Source of the DNA: an uncultured Saprospiraceae bacterium
Lineage (GTDB): Bacteria; Bacteroidota; Bacteroidia; Chitinophagales; Saprospiraceae
Assembly: GCA_938015595.1 (NCBI GenBank)
Contig: CALLPI010000005.1
Location: 1 to 64,000, forward strand
Length of the DNA: 64,000 bases
Direction of reading: 5' to 3'
The notes under the pieces were generated by a model that did not search any database, was not told the origin of the DNA, and was given only the letters and a program-made list of their open reading frames with translations. Of the stretch, positions 24,011 to 28,034 are shown one piece after another; positions within the stretch are counted from its first letter, which is position 1; every line of letters begins with the position of its first letter. A program made the translations under genes and the position numbers.

Positions 24011-25516
24011 ATGGGTTTAAAATCCGTATTGGTATGGCCTTTTGCCAGGTTCACTGCGGCGCAGATTGACCGCTGGGCAATGCAGGCCGCGGCGGTGCAA
24101 GAGCGTACATTCCAACATTTGGTGTATCGGGCGCGCCACACGGCTTTTGGCCGTGAGCATGGCTTTGAGCGCATCCGCACTTATGAGGACTTCAAAAAGG
24201 CAGTACCCATACGCGACTATGAAGCGCTGCGTCCCTGGGTGGATCGCATCATCGCTGGCGAGCGCGATGTACTGTGGCCGGGCCGCCCGCGATACTTTGC
24301 TAAAACCAGCGGCACCACCTCTGGAGTGAAGTACATTCCACTTACTACCGATAGCCTGCCTAATCATGTAGGTACAGCGCGCAACGCCTTGTTCAATCAC
24401 TTTGCCCGCACTGGTCGGGGTGCCTGGTTGGACGGCAAGGTCATCTTTCTTTCTGGTAGCCCGGTGTTGGACGAAGTGGGCGGCATACCCACAGGGCGCT
24501 TGTCGGGCATTGTAAATCACCTGGTGCCAGCCTGGCTGCGCAGCAACCAGATGCCCTCCTACGCCGTCAATTGTATTGAGGACTGGGAGGAGAAGGTAGA
24601 GCGCATAGTAGATGAGACCCTTCGGGCTGATATGCGCCTCATCAGTGGCATACCGCCCTGGGTACAGATGTACTACGAGCGGCTGCTGGCGCGCAGCGGA
24701 AAGGCTACTATCAAGGAGGTATTTCCTAATCTGTGTATGTTTGTGTATGGCGGGGTCAACTTTGAGCCTTACCGCGCAAAGTTAGAGGCATTGGTAGGAG
24801 GTGAAATTGACAGCCTGGAGACTTATCCTGCTTCAGAGGGGTTTATTGCATTCCAAGACCGACCCGGACAGCCCGGGCTACTACTTAATGCCAATTCGGG
24901 CATTTTCTTTGAGTTTGTGCCATCTGGGGAGATTTTTAATGAGTGGCCTACTCGTTTGTCGTTGCGCGAGGTAGAGCTAGGGGTAAACTATGCCCTGATC
25001 ATTAACAACAATGCCGGTTTGTGGAGTTACAACATTGGTGACACAGTGGAGTTTGTCAGTACAAATCCGCCGCGCTTACTTGTTACTGGCCGCGTGAAGC
25101 ATTTTATCTCAGCCTTCGGTGAGCACGTCATTGGCAAAGAAGTAGAGGAGGCTATGCTGCAGGCCGCCGAAGCGCATGGTGTGCGCGTCGTGGAGTTTAC
25201 GGTAGCGCCGCAGATTGCACCGCCGGAGGGTGGGTTGCCCTACCACGAGTGGTGGGTAGAATTTGACACCCCGCCAGCCGATCTCGATGCCTTTTCTGCT
25301 ACCCTTGATGCAGCCATGACTCGTCAGAATATCTATTATCAAGACCTTATTCAGGGCAAGATATTACGACCCTGTACGGTGCGCATACTGCCCCGAGACG
25401 CTTTCAGGCAGTATATGAAATCGCTGGGTAAACTGGGGGGGCAAAACAAAGTACCCCGTTTGTCGAATGATCGCCAGATAGCCGAAGCCTTGGCGCTACT
25501 GCTGCCTCAGCCGTAG
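24011..25516 (+). CDS. GH3 family acyl-adenylating protein
   Basis: A 501-residue homologue of plant GH3 enzymes, which adenylate carboxylic acids and join them to amino acids. Landmarks: FAKTSGTTSGVKYIP (ATP phosphate loop, residues about 95-109), the conserved LETYPASEGF motif, NSGIFFEFVP, YALIINNNAGLWSYNIGDTVEFV and GRVKHFISAFGEHV. Bacterial members occur widely in Bacteroidota, but their substrates are largely unknown, so auxin chemistry should not be assumed. The protein has no signal peptide and should be cytoplasmic. Start MGLKSVLVWPFARF at 24011. It follows tatC and the small membrane protein on the same strand. Confidence 0.88.
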   Translation: MGLKSVLVWPFARFTAAQIDRWAMQAAAVQERTFQHLVYRARHTAFGREHGFERIRTYEDFKKAVPIRDYEALRPWVDRIIAGERDVLWPGRPRYFAKTSGTTSGVKYIPLTTDSLPNHVGTARNALFNHFARTGRGAWLDGKVIFLSGSPVLDEVGGIPTGRLSGIVNHLVPAWLRSNQMPSYAVNCIEDWEEKVERIVDETLRADMRLISGIPPWVQMYYERLLARSGKATIKEVFPNLCMFVYGGVNFEPYRAKLEALVGGEIDSLETYPASEGFIAFQDRPGQPGLLLNANSGIFFEFVPSGEIFNEWPTRLSLREVELGVNYALIINNNAGLWSYNIGDTVEFVSTNPPRLLVTGRVKHFISAFGEHVIGKEVEEAMLQAAEAHGVRVVEFTVAPQIAPPEGGLPYHEWWVEFDTPPADLDAFSATLDAAMTRQNIYYQDLIQGKILRPCTVRILPRDAFRQYMKSLGKLGGQNKVPRLSNDRQIAEALALLLPQP

Positions 25517-25938
25517 GCGTGGTGTAGCAGGTCGTAAGTGGTGACGATGCCCACTAACAGGCCTTCTTCATCTACTACAGGCAAGGCGTGGAAGAGGTTT
25601 TCGCGGAAGAAGCCAGCAGCCAACTCTACGGTGTCATCAGGCCGGATAGTGGCTATTGGCTTGGTCATCACTTCTTTAACCAATAGAGAGCGCAGGATGG
25701 CGTCGTTATATTCGTGGCTTTTGTGGGTTTTGAACAAAGTGAAGCCGTGTAGCAACTTCAGGTAGTCGCTATAACTGAGGATACCTACTGCCTTGCCTTC
25801 CTCTACTACCGGGATGTGATGGATGTTGTGCTTGCGAAAGATATCTTGCACAATTTCCATTGTATCAGTGGGTTGTACTACGATGACATTTTTCGTCATG
25901 ATGTCGGCAATGCGAGTAGTTTTATCAACAGTAATCAT
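25507..25938 (-). CDS. CBS-pair protein A
   Basis: A 143-residue protein made of two CBS motifs: DIMTKNVIVVQPTDTMEIVQDIFRKHNIHHIPVV and VMTKPIATIRPDDTVELAAGFFRENLFHALPVVDEEGLLVGIVTTYDLL (both in pieces). CBS pairs bind adenosyl ligands such as AMP or ATP and usually act as energy sensors. No enzymatic or transport domain is attached. The ATG overlaps the stop of the upstream paralogue by 4 bases (ATGA), so the two are translationally coupled. The 3' end overlaps that of the convergent GH3 gene by about 10 bases. Confidence 0.9.
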   Translation of the reverse strand: MITVDKTTRIADIMTKNVIVVQPTDTMEIVQDIFRKHNIHHIPVVEEGKAVGILSYSDYLKLLHGFTLFKTHKSHEYNDAILRSLLVKEVMTKPIATIRPDDTVELAAGFFRENLFHALPVVDEEGLLVGIVTTYDLLHHAYG

Positions 25939-26387
25939 AGCATTTCGGTAGTTTCTTTTTCAAAAAAGGCATCATTGAAGCTGTATAGCAACAGATCGTG
26001 TGTAGTCACCATACCCACCAGTTGGTTATCTTCCACGATAGGTAGAGCATGGAAGCGATTGGCCAGGAAGATGTCGGCCGCCAGGCCAATGGAATCGTCA
26101 GGATCCAGTACTAGTGGGTTTTTGGTCATGATGTCCTGGGCACGTAAGGACTGGTATTCTTTTTCTGACCAGGTTTTGCCGGTAGTGCGTAGCGACATGC
26201 GGTAGGCCAGGCGGTAAAAATCCTCCCTACTAATGATACCCATTAGCACGCCGCCTTTGTCCACCACTGGCAGGTGATGAAAAAGGTGATGCTCAAACAA
26301 ATTCTGGATACTGCTCAATCCTGTATCTGGCGTTACAGTGATTAGCTCGGCAGTCATAATGTCCCGGACAGGCCTTTCTGTATTCAT
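25935..26387 (-). CDS. CBS-pair protein B
   Basis: A 150-residue stand-alone CBS-pair protein and tandem paralogue of the next gene: VRDIMTAELITVTPDTGLSSIQNLFEHHLFHHLPVV and DIMTKNPLVLDPDDSIGLAADIFLANRFHALPIVEDNQLVGMVTTHDLL in pieces. The two proteins share organisation throughout and presumably arose by duplication; coupled translation suggests they may form a heterodimer, as CBS-pair proteins dimerise. I take the start MNTERPV at 26387; ATG codons at 26396 and 26417 are alternatives. A -7 box TACTTTTG lies at 26495-26502 on the minus strand. Confidence 0.88.
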   Translation of the reverse strand: MNTERPVRDIMTAELITVTPDTGLSSIQNLFEHHLFHHLPVVDKGGVLMGIISREDFYRLAYRMSLRTTGKTWSEKEYQSLRAQDIMTKNPLVLDPDDSIGLAADIFLANRFHALPIVEDNQLVGMVTTHDLLLYSFNDAFFEKETTEML

Positions 26388-26417
26388 TGCTCTCATTTCA
26401 TGGTGTGATTCAATCAT

Positions 26418-26807
26418 CGTCTGCCAAGAGCAATACTTTCTAAAACTTCGCCTGCAAATGTGCGCAGGTATTGAAAGAACTGCTTCTTTGTAGCCAAAAG
26501 TAGCTTCTATACAGAGTGTGGCGCGCTGACAAGCGTCAGCTCAAGTTTTGATTTTTGTCAGCAGCATGCAGGTAAGCGAAAGGAGCCGAGTGCCTGCGTT
26601 CGTTTATAGTTTTAGTGTGATGCAAGTCTTTTTTGCTTTCTGCAATTTAGCAGTATTGCTAGCAATTCAAAGTGATTTTCTAAGAAGTAAAAGCCTTCAG
26701 CACAGATGGCAATCTTAAATGCTCACGGGCTTTGCGCCATCTTCACTTTTGTCTGTTCTGGCAGCACCGGGTGTGCAATACTTTTTGGGGGTGTAAAAAA
26801 CCTTGTA
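26418..26807. other. Long intergenic region without a recognisable gene
   Basis: About 390 bases between the divergent CBS and membrane-protein genes. I see a perfect 6-bp hairpin GCTGAC/GTCAGC at 26525-26540 with no T-run, the CBS promoter candidate, and otherwise no coding or RNA signal. The right edge runs into the tandem operator array. Confidence 0.5.
26495..26502 (-). promoter_or_regulatory. Possible -7 box of the CBS gene pair
   Basis: TACTTTTG on the minus strand matches TAnnTTTG. The leader to the chosen start would be about 100 bases; no -33 element is evident. Confidence 0.4.
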
Positions 26808-26885
26808 TTGTAAAAAATTTTTTACTTTTGTAAAGCATTCTTTACTTTTGTAAAAAATTCTTTACTTTTGTAAAAATCTTTAACT
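26808..26885 (+). promoter_or_regulatory. Tandem 20-bp operator/promoter array
   Basis: Three head-to-tail 20-bp repeats (26808-26827, 26828-26847, 26848-26867) and a degenerate fourth (26868-26885). Each holds an inverted repeat GTAAA-N6-TTTAC (26810-26825, 26830-26845, 26850-26865), the shape of a dimeric repressor site, and the 20-bp spacing places all sites close to the same helix face. Each junction also forms TACTTTTG (26823-26830, 26843-26850, 26863-26870), a full match to the Bacteroidota -7 box. The first -7 box has a TTG 17 bases upstream. The array precedes a membrane-protein/XRE-regulator operon, so the regulator is the obvious candidate ligand. Confidence 0.75.
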
Positions 26886-26901
26886 CTTTAACTTGTATGC
26901 C

Positions 26902-27366
26902 ATGAAAACAATGCGATTACTTGCACCCAAGTGGAAATGGATAGGTGTTGCACTGACTGTGCCAGGTCTGGTGCTGGGATTTTTTTCTGTGTTCTACGAA
27001 TTTGAATTCCCGTGGTTGAATTTTCAATTGAGGGACGAAAAAGAAACCGACTTTTTTCGGAAAGCTGAAGAGAACTTTACCAACGAAATTGCTTTGACGC
27101 TGACGGTTGTAGGTTTGCTCATTCTGGCCTATACCCGCGAGGAGGTGGAGGATGAGCGCGTGCGGCTTATTAGACTGGAGGCTTTTCAGTGGAGCGTGCT
27201 CATTAGCTTCTTGTTGGTATTGGCAGGCAATTGGTTGTTGTATTCCTTTGATTTTTATGTGTTTATGGTATTCAACTTATTCACTCCACTGGTCATTTTT
27301 GTGCTGCGGTTTCACTACGTGTTGTACAGAGAAGCCCGACAAACCTCAAAAGATACCAGCCTATGA
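26902..27366 (+). CDS. Four-helix membrane protein, function unknown
   Basis: A 154-residue protein starting MKTMRLLAPKWKW with membrane helices around residues 14-31, 65-80, 95-113 and 117-136. The soluble loop between the first two contains a conserved-looking FRKAEENFTNEIALTL, and a charged cytoplasmic segment TREEVEDERVRLIRLEAFQWS lies between helices two and three. Membrane proteins with the EEVEDERxxxIR segment are regularly paired with small XRE regulators in bacteria; their role is not known to me. The start ATG 26902 lies 35-70 bases downstream of the operator array. It overlaps the regulator gene by 4 bases (ATGA). Confidence 0.82.
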   Translation: MKTMRLLAPKWKWIGVALTVPGLVLGFFSVFYEFEFPWLNFQLRDEKETDFFRKAEENFTNEIALTLTVVGLLILAYTREEVEDERVRLIRLEAFQWSVLISFLLVLAGNWLLYSFDFYVFMVFNLFTPLVIFVLRFHYVLYREARQTSKDTSL

Positions 27367-27563
27367 AGAACAGGGTAAAAGAAGAGCGCGCCCGCCTGAA
27401 CATGCAGCAGCAAGAATTGGCTGAGCGCATTGGTGTAAGCCGTCAGACAATGCACTCCATTGAGCATAACCGATACGTGCCCTCCACAGTACTGGCGCTG
27501 AAGATAGCCGCTGTATTCGGCAAGCCAGTGGAGGAGATTTTTATGTTGGAAGAGGATGATTGA
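27363..27563 (+). CDS. Small XRE-family transcriptional regulator
   Basis: A 66-residue helix-turn-helix protein of the Cro/CI type, nearly all of it the DNA-binding domain: RVKEERARLNMQQQELAERIGVSRQTMHSIEHNRYVPSTVLALKIAAVFGKPVEEIF in pieces. It belongs to the short YozG-like group that acts as a dimer without a separate ligand domain. It is translationally coupled to the preceding membrane protein (ATGA overlap at 27363-27366). By analogy with such pairs it probably represses its own operon through the palindromic array at 26808-26885; this is inference from position and symmetry. Confidence 0.93.
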   Translation: MKNRVKEERARLNMQQQELAERIGVSRQTMHSIEHNRYVPSTVLALKIAAVFGKPVEEIFMLEEDD

Positions 27564-27620
27564 GTGTATTAGCTGATCAATGGGGGAGGGCGGTGCGTGT
27601 ATGATAAATTCCTGCTCAGT

Positions 27621-28034
27621 TCAAATATTGCGGGTTAGGTTGCGATCCACCAGTACTTCTTTGAGTTCCTTAAGGAGTTTGTACTGATGGGGCATTACCT
27701 TTTTGAAGGCTTCCTTAATGGCTACAAACGTGCCTTGTTCCATTTCGGAGAGTTTTTCCGAGAGGGCTACCGCATCTTCATAAAGCATGGCCTTGAGCGA
27801 GGGAATGTCGTGCCAGTCGCCTTCTACGGCCCAGGCTTGTTCAGTTTCGCCATCGGCTTTGCTTACAGGGTCGAGTGCAATCAGTTTATCCTGCTGCATG
27901 AGCACTTCAGCCTTGTGCTGGGCATCGGGGCCTTCTGGTATCAGCCACTGATCTTCATCTGGTATGAGGAAGATTTCGAGGCCGCGCTCCCGAAAGCGAT
28001 AAATAATCAAGCGGACTTTTTCCCTCAGATTCAT
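27621..28034 (-). CDS. Hypothetical protein with Nudix-like N-terminus lacking the Nudix box
   Basis: A 137-residue soluble protein. Its start (residues 8-34, RLIIYRFRERGLEIFLIP then DEDQWLIPEG) has the look of the first strands of a Nudix hydrolase, where hydrophobic strands are followed by W.LP.G. The Nudix box with its REUxEExGU catalytic helix is absent, so it is unlikely to be an active Nudix enzyme. The rest is acidic and helical (LYEDAVALSEKLSEMEQGTFVAIKEAFKKVMPHQYKLLKELKEVL in pieces). A near-consensus -7 box TACCTTTA lies upstream. I give no function. It is upstream of, and co-oriented with, nothing that would explain it. Confidence 0.7.
   Translation of the reverse strand: MNLREKVRLIIYRFRERGLEIFLIPDEDQWLIPEGPDAQHKAEVLMQQDKLIALDPVSKADGETEQAWAVEGDWHDIPSLKAMLYEDAVALSEKLSEMEQGTFVAIKEAFKKVMPHQYKLLKELKEVLVDRNLTRNI

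What the first reader, a model, noticed from the sequence alone, without database searches (positions are those of the whole stretch)
26808..26885. Tandem 20-bp palindromes fused with three promoter -7 boxes
Three head-to-tail 20-bp repeats each hold the inverted repeat GTAAA-N6-TTTAC, and every repeat junction regenerates TACTTTTG, the Bacteroidota -7 box. Binding of one repressor would thus cover three or more potential promoters at once, with sites on nearly one helix face. The array precedes a coupled membrane-protein/XRE-regulator pair. The design (operator and -7 box in one repeating unit) suggests a switch whose strength could also vary by repeat number.
Basis: partly seen in the sequence, partly recalled or inferred. 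Interest (0 to 1): 0.58.

Follow-up and report, generated by a model that had tools for sequence, protein, structure and literature searches.

The report
Repeated operator–promoter unit of self-regulating pair
In front of a small two-gene unit (a membrane protein and a DNA-binding regulator) sits a triple repeat that is very probably the regulator's own binding site built into the promoter; related bacteria across the Bacteroidota carry the same kind of site, but the threefold promoter copy was found only here.

Summary
Three 20-bp repeats (26808-26876) hold GTAAA-N6-TTTAC, and each junction makes TACTTTTG. An unbiased word search over 126 promoters ranked GTAAA-N6-TTTAC first (66 of 126; shuffles 0.15). 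Units recur every 21 or 20 bp, and the half-sites supply the -33 (TTGAC/TTGTC) and -7 (TAC.TTTG) elements. One clade of eight regulators with Ala instead of Thr/Ser in the recognition helix has GTAAT-N6-ATTAC instead (8 of 8, against 0 of 126), which ties the site to the regulator. So the array is most likely the autorepression operator of a CylR1/CylR2-like membrane-protein/XRE pair. Two corrections: only boxes 2 and 3 have a family-like -33 block; and most promoters have one fused -7 box, three being unique among 134. The exact double unit was in no other genome of two samples of 395 and 298. No further targets stand out in the genome. Binding, repression and sensing are inferred. A variant of a known design.

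The parts
26808..26876 (+). Tandem array, 3.5 copies of a 20-bp unit (consensus TTGTAAAAAATTCTTTACTT)
26810..26825 (.). Operator palindrome 1, GTAAA-AAATTT-TTTAC
26830..26845 (.). Operator palindrome 2, GTAAA-GCATTC-TTTAC; also occupies the -33 region of box 3
26850..26865 (.). Operator palindrome 3, GTAAA-AAATTC-TTTAC
26823..26830 (+). -7 box 1 (TACTTTTG); no family-like -33 block upstream
26843..26850 (+). -7 box 2 (TACTTTTG); -33 block = palindrome 1 in the 20-bp register
26863..26870 (+). -7 box 3 (TACTTTTG); best-placed promoter, 31 nt before the ATG; start site expected near 26875 if the box lies at -12 to -5
   Evidence: box position from PMC9723704 passages; start site inferred
26793..26808 (.). 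Degenerate upstream unit (GTAAAAAACCTTGTAT) with TTG at 26803-26805, 17 bp before box 1
   Evidence: alignment by eye with L007
26870..26884 (.). Degenerate downstream unit (GTAAAAATCTTTAAC), in the place of the third palindrome of L007
26902..27366 (+). 154-aa membrane protein, four predicted transmembrane helices (11-31, 60-77, 85-112, 118-152); no Pfam/NCBIfam family above cut-off; EDE 83-85 invariant in the 13 aligned sequences
27363..27563 (+). 66-aa XRE regulator (HTH_3), recognition helix SRQTMHSIE; solved relatives 9k3w and CylR2 (1utx)

Best explanation
The array is the autoregulatory operator-promoter of a CylR1/CylR2-like operon. A dimer of the 66-aa XRE protein binds each GTAAA-N6-TTTAC palindrome. 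Neighbouring palindromes lie about two helical turns apart, so two or three dimers sit side by side on one face of the DNA. Their half-sites contain the bases that sigma needs: the TA of the -7 box is the TA of TTTAC, and the -33 element lies in the 3' half-site of the unit upstream. Repressor and RNA polymerase therefore compete for the same bases and the operon limits its own expression. The membrane protein, translated just before the regulator from the same message, probably senses a membrane signal and relieves repression. Shown here: the anatomy, the conservation, the geometry and the change of half-site with the recognition helix. Inferred: binding, cooperativity, repression (rather than activation) and the sensing role.
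For: (1) Enumeration of all 5-mers and spacers 0-20 in 134 non-redundant promoters: GTAAA-N6-TTTAC is first in the Thr/Ser class (66 of 126 loci; shuffled mean 0.15; best of any word in 20 shuffled sets 5-7) and GTAAT-N6-ATTAC in the Ala class (8 of 8; shuffled 0.05). (2) No crossing over between classes: 0 of 8 Ala-class promoters have the GTAAA palindrome and 0 of 126 Thr/Ser ones the GTAAT palindrome. The nearest Thr relatives in the tree (L135, L136, L143) have GTAAA half-sites. (3) Real-DNA control: 85 palindromes in 18.8 kb of promoter against 8 in 382 kb of the rest of the same loci. (4) Spacer fixed at 6 (66 loci against 1 at N5, 6 at N1); linker 5 or 4; successive units 21 bp (79) or 20 bp (14) apart. 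(5) Aligned on the -7 box alone, 88 promoters give GTAAA-N6-TTGAC-N5-GTAAA-N6-TTTAC.TTTG. 50 of 106 -7 boxes in these promoters have GTAAA 13 bp before them, against 3 of 215 elsewhere. (6) Later loci, not used to find the motif: exact palindrome in 14 of 28 Thr/Ser pairs. (7) The regulator matches CylR2 (E 1.5e-10). (8) No further operator-promoter sites in the genome above the control, so local autoregulation is the simplest reading.
Against: No binding or expression data exist here. 14 of 126 Thr/Ser promoters show no unit even with relaxed half-sites; some of these may have misplaced starts. All eight Ala-class regulators form one clade, so their half-site change is one evolutionary event. 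An independent Ala regulator (L157, another partner protein) does not have GTAAT in its promoter, so Ala alone does not explain the shift. Boxes 2 and 3 have TTTAC rather than TTG at -33, and box 1 has a weak -33 block. The sign of regulation is not shown; XRE proteins can also activate.
Confidence: 0.78

Rival explanations
1. The sites are real operators, but the regulator activates or acts as a dual switch, the tandem dimers recruiting polymerase from upstream while a downstream site represses.
For: Units lie on one face at 20-21 bp, and 82 of 134 promoters have two or more units, which would also suit cooperative activation or a two-stage switch.
Against: The sites overlap the -33 and -7 boxes themselves, which favours steric exclusion of polymerase.
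Confidence: 0.1
2. The array is bound by a different regulator (another XRE protein or a global factor) that also controls this operon.
For: The genome search with a related XRE sequence counted 2 matches in the own genome; the second was not examined.
Against: Half-sites change together with the recognition helix of the linked regulator; the palindrome stays beside the pair across the phylum; other sites in the own genome are at control level.
Confidence: 0.06
3. Chance AT-rich tandem repeat, or slippage product without regulatory role.
For: The tripled unit is unique to this species in the samples searched, as expected of a recent local duplication.
Against: The unit itself is conserved across the phylum far above shuffles and real-DNA controls, and L007 of the same genus keeps three palindromes at 20-bp spacing at the same place.
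Confidence: 0.03
4. The pair is a toxin-antitoxin or defence module with the XRE protein as antitoxin and autorepressor.
For: Two-gene operon with overlapping ORFs and an XRE protein; several PADLOC profiles match the XRE, all as general HTH.
Against: The membrane protein matches no PADLOC, Pfam or NCBIfam family above cut-off; two tandem copies of the membrane gene with one regulator occur in 20 of the 148 distinct loci, which does not fit a toxin well.
Confidence: 0.08

Closest known systems
CylR1/CylR2 of Enterococcus faecalis
   Same: 66-residue XRE regulator homologous over residues 3-62 (1utx, E 1.5e-10), encoded with a small membrane protein; promoter binding by the regulator and a suspected signalling role for the membrane protein (passages of PMC3709268).
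   Different: CylR1 has three predicted membrane helices according to PMC3709268; this protein has four in the model. CylR2 also controls a neighbouring cytolysin operon; no such second target was found here. The CylR2 operator was not compared (paper not held).
SdpR/SdpI of Bacillus subtilis
   Same: Works alike in outline: autorepressor plus membrane protein that relieves repression on a membrane signal (passages of PMC1626106).
   Different: Different regulator family (ArsR type, recalled); signal and sequestration are not shown here.
9k3w, PbsX-family transcriptional regulator (solved structure)
   Same: Nearest solved sequence to the regulator (E 6.7e-13).
   Different: No paper on it was recognised in two searches; its operator is unknown to me.
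Bacteroidota sigma-A promoters (TAnnTTTG at -7, TTTG near -33)
   Same: Three exact -7 boxes; consensus as in PMC7366714 and PMC9723704 (passages).
   Different: -33 of boxes 2 and 3 is TTTAC, part of an operator half-site.

Membership tests
CylR1/CylR2-like membrane-protein/XRE pair | Short XRE regulator homologous to CylR2 | tested here: met
   phmmer 1utx E 1.5e-10 over residues 3-62; HTH_3 49 bits, cut-off 23
CylR1/CylR2-like membrane-protein/XRE pair | Small integral membrane protein in the same operon | tested here: met
   4-bp ORF overlap; four-helix model, pLDDT 82. Homology to CylR1 itself was not tested
CylR1/CylR2-like membrane-protein/XRE pair | Regulator binds an inverted repeat in the promoter | tested here: inconclusive
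   Strong comparative support; no binding assay possible
CylR1/CylR2-like membrane-protein/XRE pair | Control of a separate effector (bacteriocin) operon | tested here: not met
   Other sites in the genome at control level. This is a feature of the cytolysin case, so the pair is called CylR1/CylR2-like, not a member of that system
CylR1/CylR2-like membrane-protein/XRE pair | Signal passed through the membrane protein | not testable with these tools
   No signal known
Bacteroidota sigma-A promoter | TAnnTTTG -7 box | tested here: met
   three TACTTTTG
Bacteroidota sigma-A promoter | -33 TTG/TTTG at the family spacing | tested here: inconclusive
   Boxes 2 and 3: TTTAC in register, profile scores 13.5 and 14.4 (family 25% 11.6, median 17.0); box 1: -2.9, random 95% level -2.8
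Type II toxin-antitoxin module | Partner is a recognisable toxin | tested here: not met
   No family match above cut-off for the membrane protein

The most novel reading that the evidence does not exclude
The 20-bp unit is a self-contained, amplifiable operator-promoter module: each copy gives its own -7 box and, through its TTTAC half-site, the -33 element of the next copy. Adding a copy would then add a start site and a repressor site together, and copy number would tune strength and cooperativity of repression at once. More widely, the CylR2-like family may follow one operator code, a 5-bp half-site GTnnn with a fixed 6-bp spacer and 5-bp linker, whose inner bases follow the recognition helix.
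Probability: 0.3. Interest if true: 0.6.

Novelty: new variant of a known kind. Interest (0 to 1): 0.42.

Why it matters
It gives a testable operator definition for a widespread but unnamed class of membrane-protein/regulator pairs in Bacteroidota, including a natural change of DNA specificity (GTAAA to GTAAT) that can be swapped in the laboratory. It also shows how an operator can be written into both elements of a Bacteroidota promoter, which is useful for building regulated promoters in this phylum.

Tried and rejected
Single-sequence scan of genome contigs with the membrane protein found nothing; the alignment A1 then did. Regulon idea: the other palindromes in the genome are at control level, so dropped. 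Rfam: no match in 26400-27700. Sigma-70/terminator scan: at shuffle level. Fold search of the membrane model: best E 2.9, no usable match. Ala residue alone as specificity switch: weakened by L157. Papers: ten searches listed nothing that I recognised, from titles and abstract starts, as describing this operator in Bacteroidota; only open-licence papers are searched, and (TGTAAA, TTTACA, XRE) and 70 are the closest to the question. PMC8457756 was searched for the half-sites: none in its text.

Rows dropped: of 148 distinct regulator loci, those without a membrane gene of this family directly upstream (10) and 4 near-identical promoters (138 to 134) were left out of the counts. The 30 later loci are reported apart; L182 among them has the same promoter and regulator as L040. 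Family counts are weighted towards well-sampled groups (Algoriphagus, Mucilaginibacter, Chitinophagaceae) and are not independent events.

Full report
WHAT IS THERE. The window lies in a Saprospiraceae genome (3.77 Mb, 27 contigs); the nearest orthologous locus, in the same genus, is that of UBA2329 (L007 = L022). Between 26808 and 26876 there are 3.5 copies of a 20-bp unit. Each holds GTAAA-N6-TTTAC, and each junction reads TTTACTTTTG, i.e. the Bacteroidota -7 box TAnnTTTG (the consensus was seen in passages of PMC7366714 and PMC9723704). The next genes are a 154-aa membrane protein (26902-27366) and a 66-aa XRE regulator (27363-27563) with a 4-bp overlap. The regulator is an HTH_3 protein whose nearest solved relatives are 9k3w and CylR2. 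The membrane protein belongs to no named family above cut-off and is modelled with four membrane helices (pLDDT 82).

CHANCE. The palindrome is found 3 times in the window and only here; none of 100 shuffles reached 3. In the genome it occurs 7 times, 3 of them in the array, against a control of 4. The longer word GTAAA-N6-TTTACnTTTG with up to one mismatch gives the three copies and three more places, against a control of 4 (3 forward, 1 reverse). So nothing else in this genome stands out as a target.

THE PAIR IN OTHER GENOMES. The membrane protein was found in 15 of 119 relatives, in 53 of 395 genomes of the class, and through an alignment in 507 candidate stretches of GTDB contigs, of which the best 80 were kept. 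For every regulator found in the fetched loci I took the 150 bp before the first gene of its operon. After removing 10 loci without this membrane family and 4 near-copies, 134 promoters remained: 126 whose regulator has Thr or Ser after SRQ/TRQ in the recognition helix and 8 with Ala.

THE OPERATOR. Counting all 5-mers paired with their reverse complement at spacers 0-20, the top word in the 126 is GTAAA-N6-TTTAC (66 loci, shuffled mean 0.15; no word in 20 shuffled sets exceeded 7) and the second is TTTAC-N5-GTAAA (45 loci). In the 8 it is GTAAT-N6-ATTAC (8 of 8, shuffled 0.05). The two palindromes do not mix: 0 of 126 and 0 of 8. In the rest of the same loci the palindrome is about 200 times rarer (85 in 18.8 kb against 8 in 382 kb). 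The spacer is 6 almost without exception, whereas the linker is 5 or 4. 21 bp is two turns of 10.5 bp; 20 bp is slightly less. A later set of 30 loci, not used to find the motif, had it in 14 of 28 Thr/Ser pairs with the membrane gene. Against: 14 of 126 promoters have no unit even by relaxed rules, and 60 of 126 lack the exact palindrome.

THE LINK TO THE REGULATOR. The eight Ala-class regulators ([TS]RQAINSIE) form one clade with support 100/90, inside a group whose other members (L135, L136, L143) have Thr and GTAAA half-sites. The tree rests on 66 columns and is weak elsewhere. The half-site change is thus one event kept in eight loci of Flavobacteriaceae, Lentimicrobiaceae and other Bacteroidota. 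One more Ala regulator, L157 (SRQAIHAIE, another membrane partner), arose separately and has no GTAAT palindrome; so the Thr to Ala change is not sufficient alone. Five plasmid-borne relatives were read, out of 30 rows listed. Bernardetia (Bacteroidota) has GTAAA-N6-TTTAC. Priestia has TTTAC-N5-GTAAA-N6-ATTAC. By eye, Paenibacillus has GTTAA-N6-TTAAC and Sphingomonas GTCAn-N6-nTGAC in the same geometry. In Streptomyces I saw none. This is a lead, not a test.

THE PROMOTER WITHIN THE OPERATOR. TAnnTTTG occurs in the last 110 bp of 92 of 133 promoters (the window left out), against 17.8 in shuffles. Aligned on that box alone, 88 promoters give a consensus that reads GTAAA-N6-TTGAC-N5-GTAAA-N6-TTTACaTTTG. 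The TA of the -7 box is the TA of a half-site, and the -33 TTG lies in the half-site one unit upstream. GTAAA-N6-TTGAC and GTAAA-N6-TTGTC occur in 29 promoters each of 126; in the Ala class 7 of 8 have TTGC there, so TTG stays while the other bases follow the regulator. A repressor on these sites would occupy both polymerase contacts.

THE WINDOW'S OWN FORM. In the window the units have not specialised into a -33 unit and a -7 unit: all three end in TTTAC and all three carry a -7 box. This is 1 of 134; 56 promoters have one TTTAC.TTTG and no other has two or more. The exact double unit TTTACNTTTGTAAA-N6-TTTACNTTTG was found in no other genome of 395 (class) or 298 (family; the two samples overlap). 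With one mismatch it appears in three other genomes of the first sample and two of the second; three of these five are TTGAC forms next to the same gene family. A profile built from 82 family promoters gives boxes 2 and 3 a good -33 block in the 20-bp register (13.5 and 14.4; family quartile 11.6, median 17.0). Box 1 scores only -2.9, the 95% level of random positions. By distance to the ATG (31 nt; family median 22, quartiles 19-26) box 3 is the likeliest main start, with box 2 as a second. L007 of the same genus has three palindromes at 20-bp spacing as -33 unit, -7 unit and a third over the start region, so the window form looks like a duplication of the middle unit.

HOW IT WORKS. Most likely autorepression by side-by-side regulator dimers, relieved through the membrane protein, as inferred for CylR1/CylR2 (passages of PMC3709268) and described for SdpI/SdpR (passages of PMC1626106). 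The operator anatomy and its link to the regulator are shown by comparison; binding, sign, cooperativity and sensing are not.

NOVELTY. Operators that overlap promoters, and pairs of this kind, are known. Ten paper searches showed no description of this operator in Bacteroidota that I recognised, in an open-licence library only. The EMBO J paper on CylR2 was not held, so I could not compare its operator. I class the window feature as a new variant of a known kind.

Noticed in passing
L040, L048, L049, L052, L060, L065, L070, L097 (promoters and regulators): A clade of regulators with [TS]RQAINSIE has GTAAT-N6-ATTAC operators while its relatives have GTAAA-N6-TTTAC: a natural specificity change in a 66-residue repressor.
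   Followed up: yes
L222 (Paenibacillus), L219 (Sphingomonas), L220 (Priestia): Distant relatives of the regulator seem to have sites of the same geometry (N6 spacer) with other inner bases (GTTAA, GTCAn) or mixed half-sites.
   Followed up: partly
20 of 148 loci, for example Algoriphagus and Mucilaginibacter loci such as L030 and L026: Two tandem, diverged copies of the membrane gene share one regulator and one promoter.
   Followed up: no
window 25507-25938 and 25935-26417, - strand: Two adjacent genes with a 4-bp overlap; the second is a CBS-domain protein (Pfam CBS) and the first looks alike by eye. They are transcribed away from the array.
   Followed up: no
L218 (Bernardetia plasmid, 601,782 bp): The same kind of pair with GTAAAATAAACTTTAC upstream lies on a large plasmid.
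   Followed up: partly
window 26877-26893: A second short tandem repeat (TCTTTAAC, 2.1 copies) directly follows the array and overlaps its last, degenerate unit.
   Followed up: no
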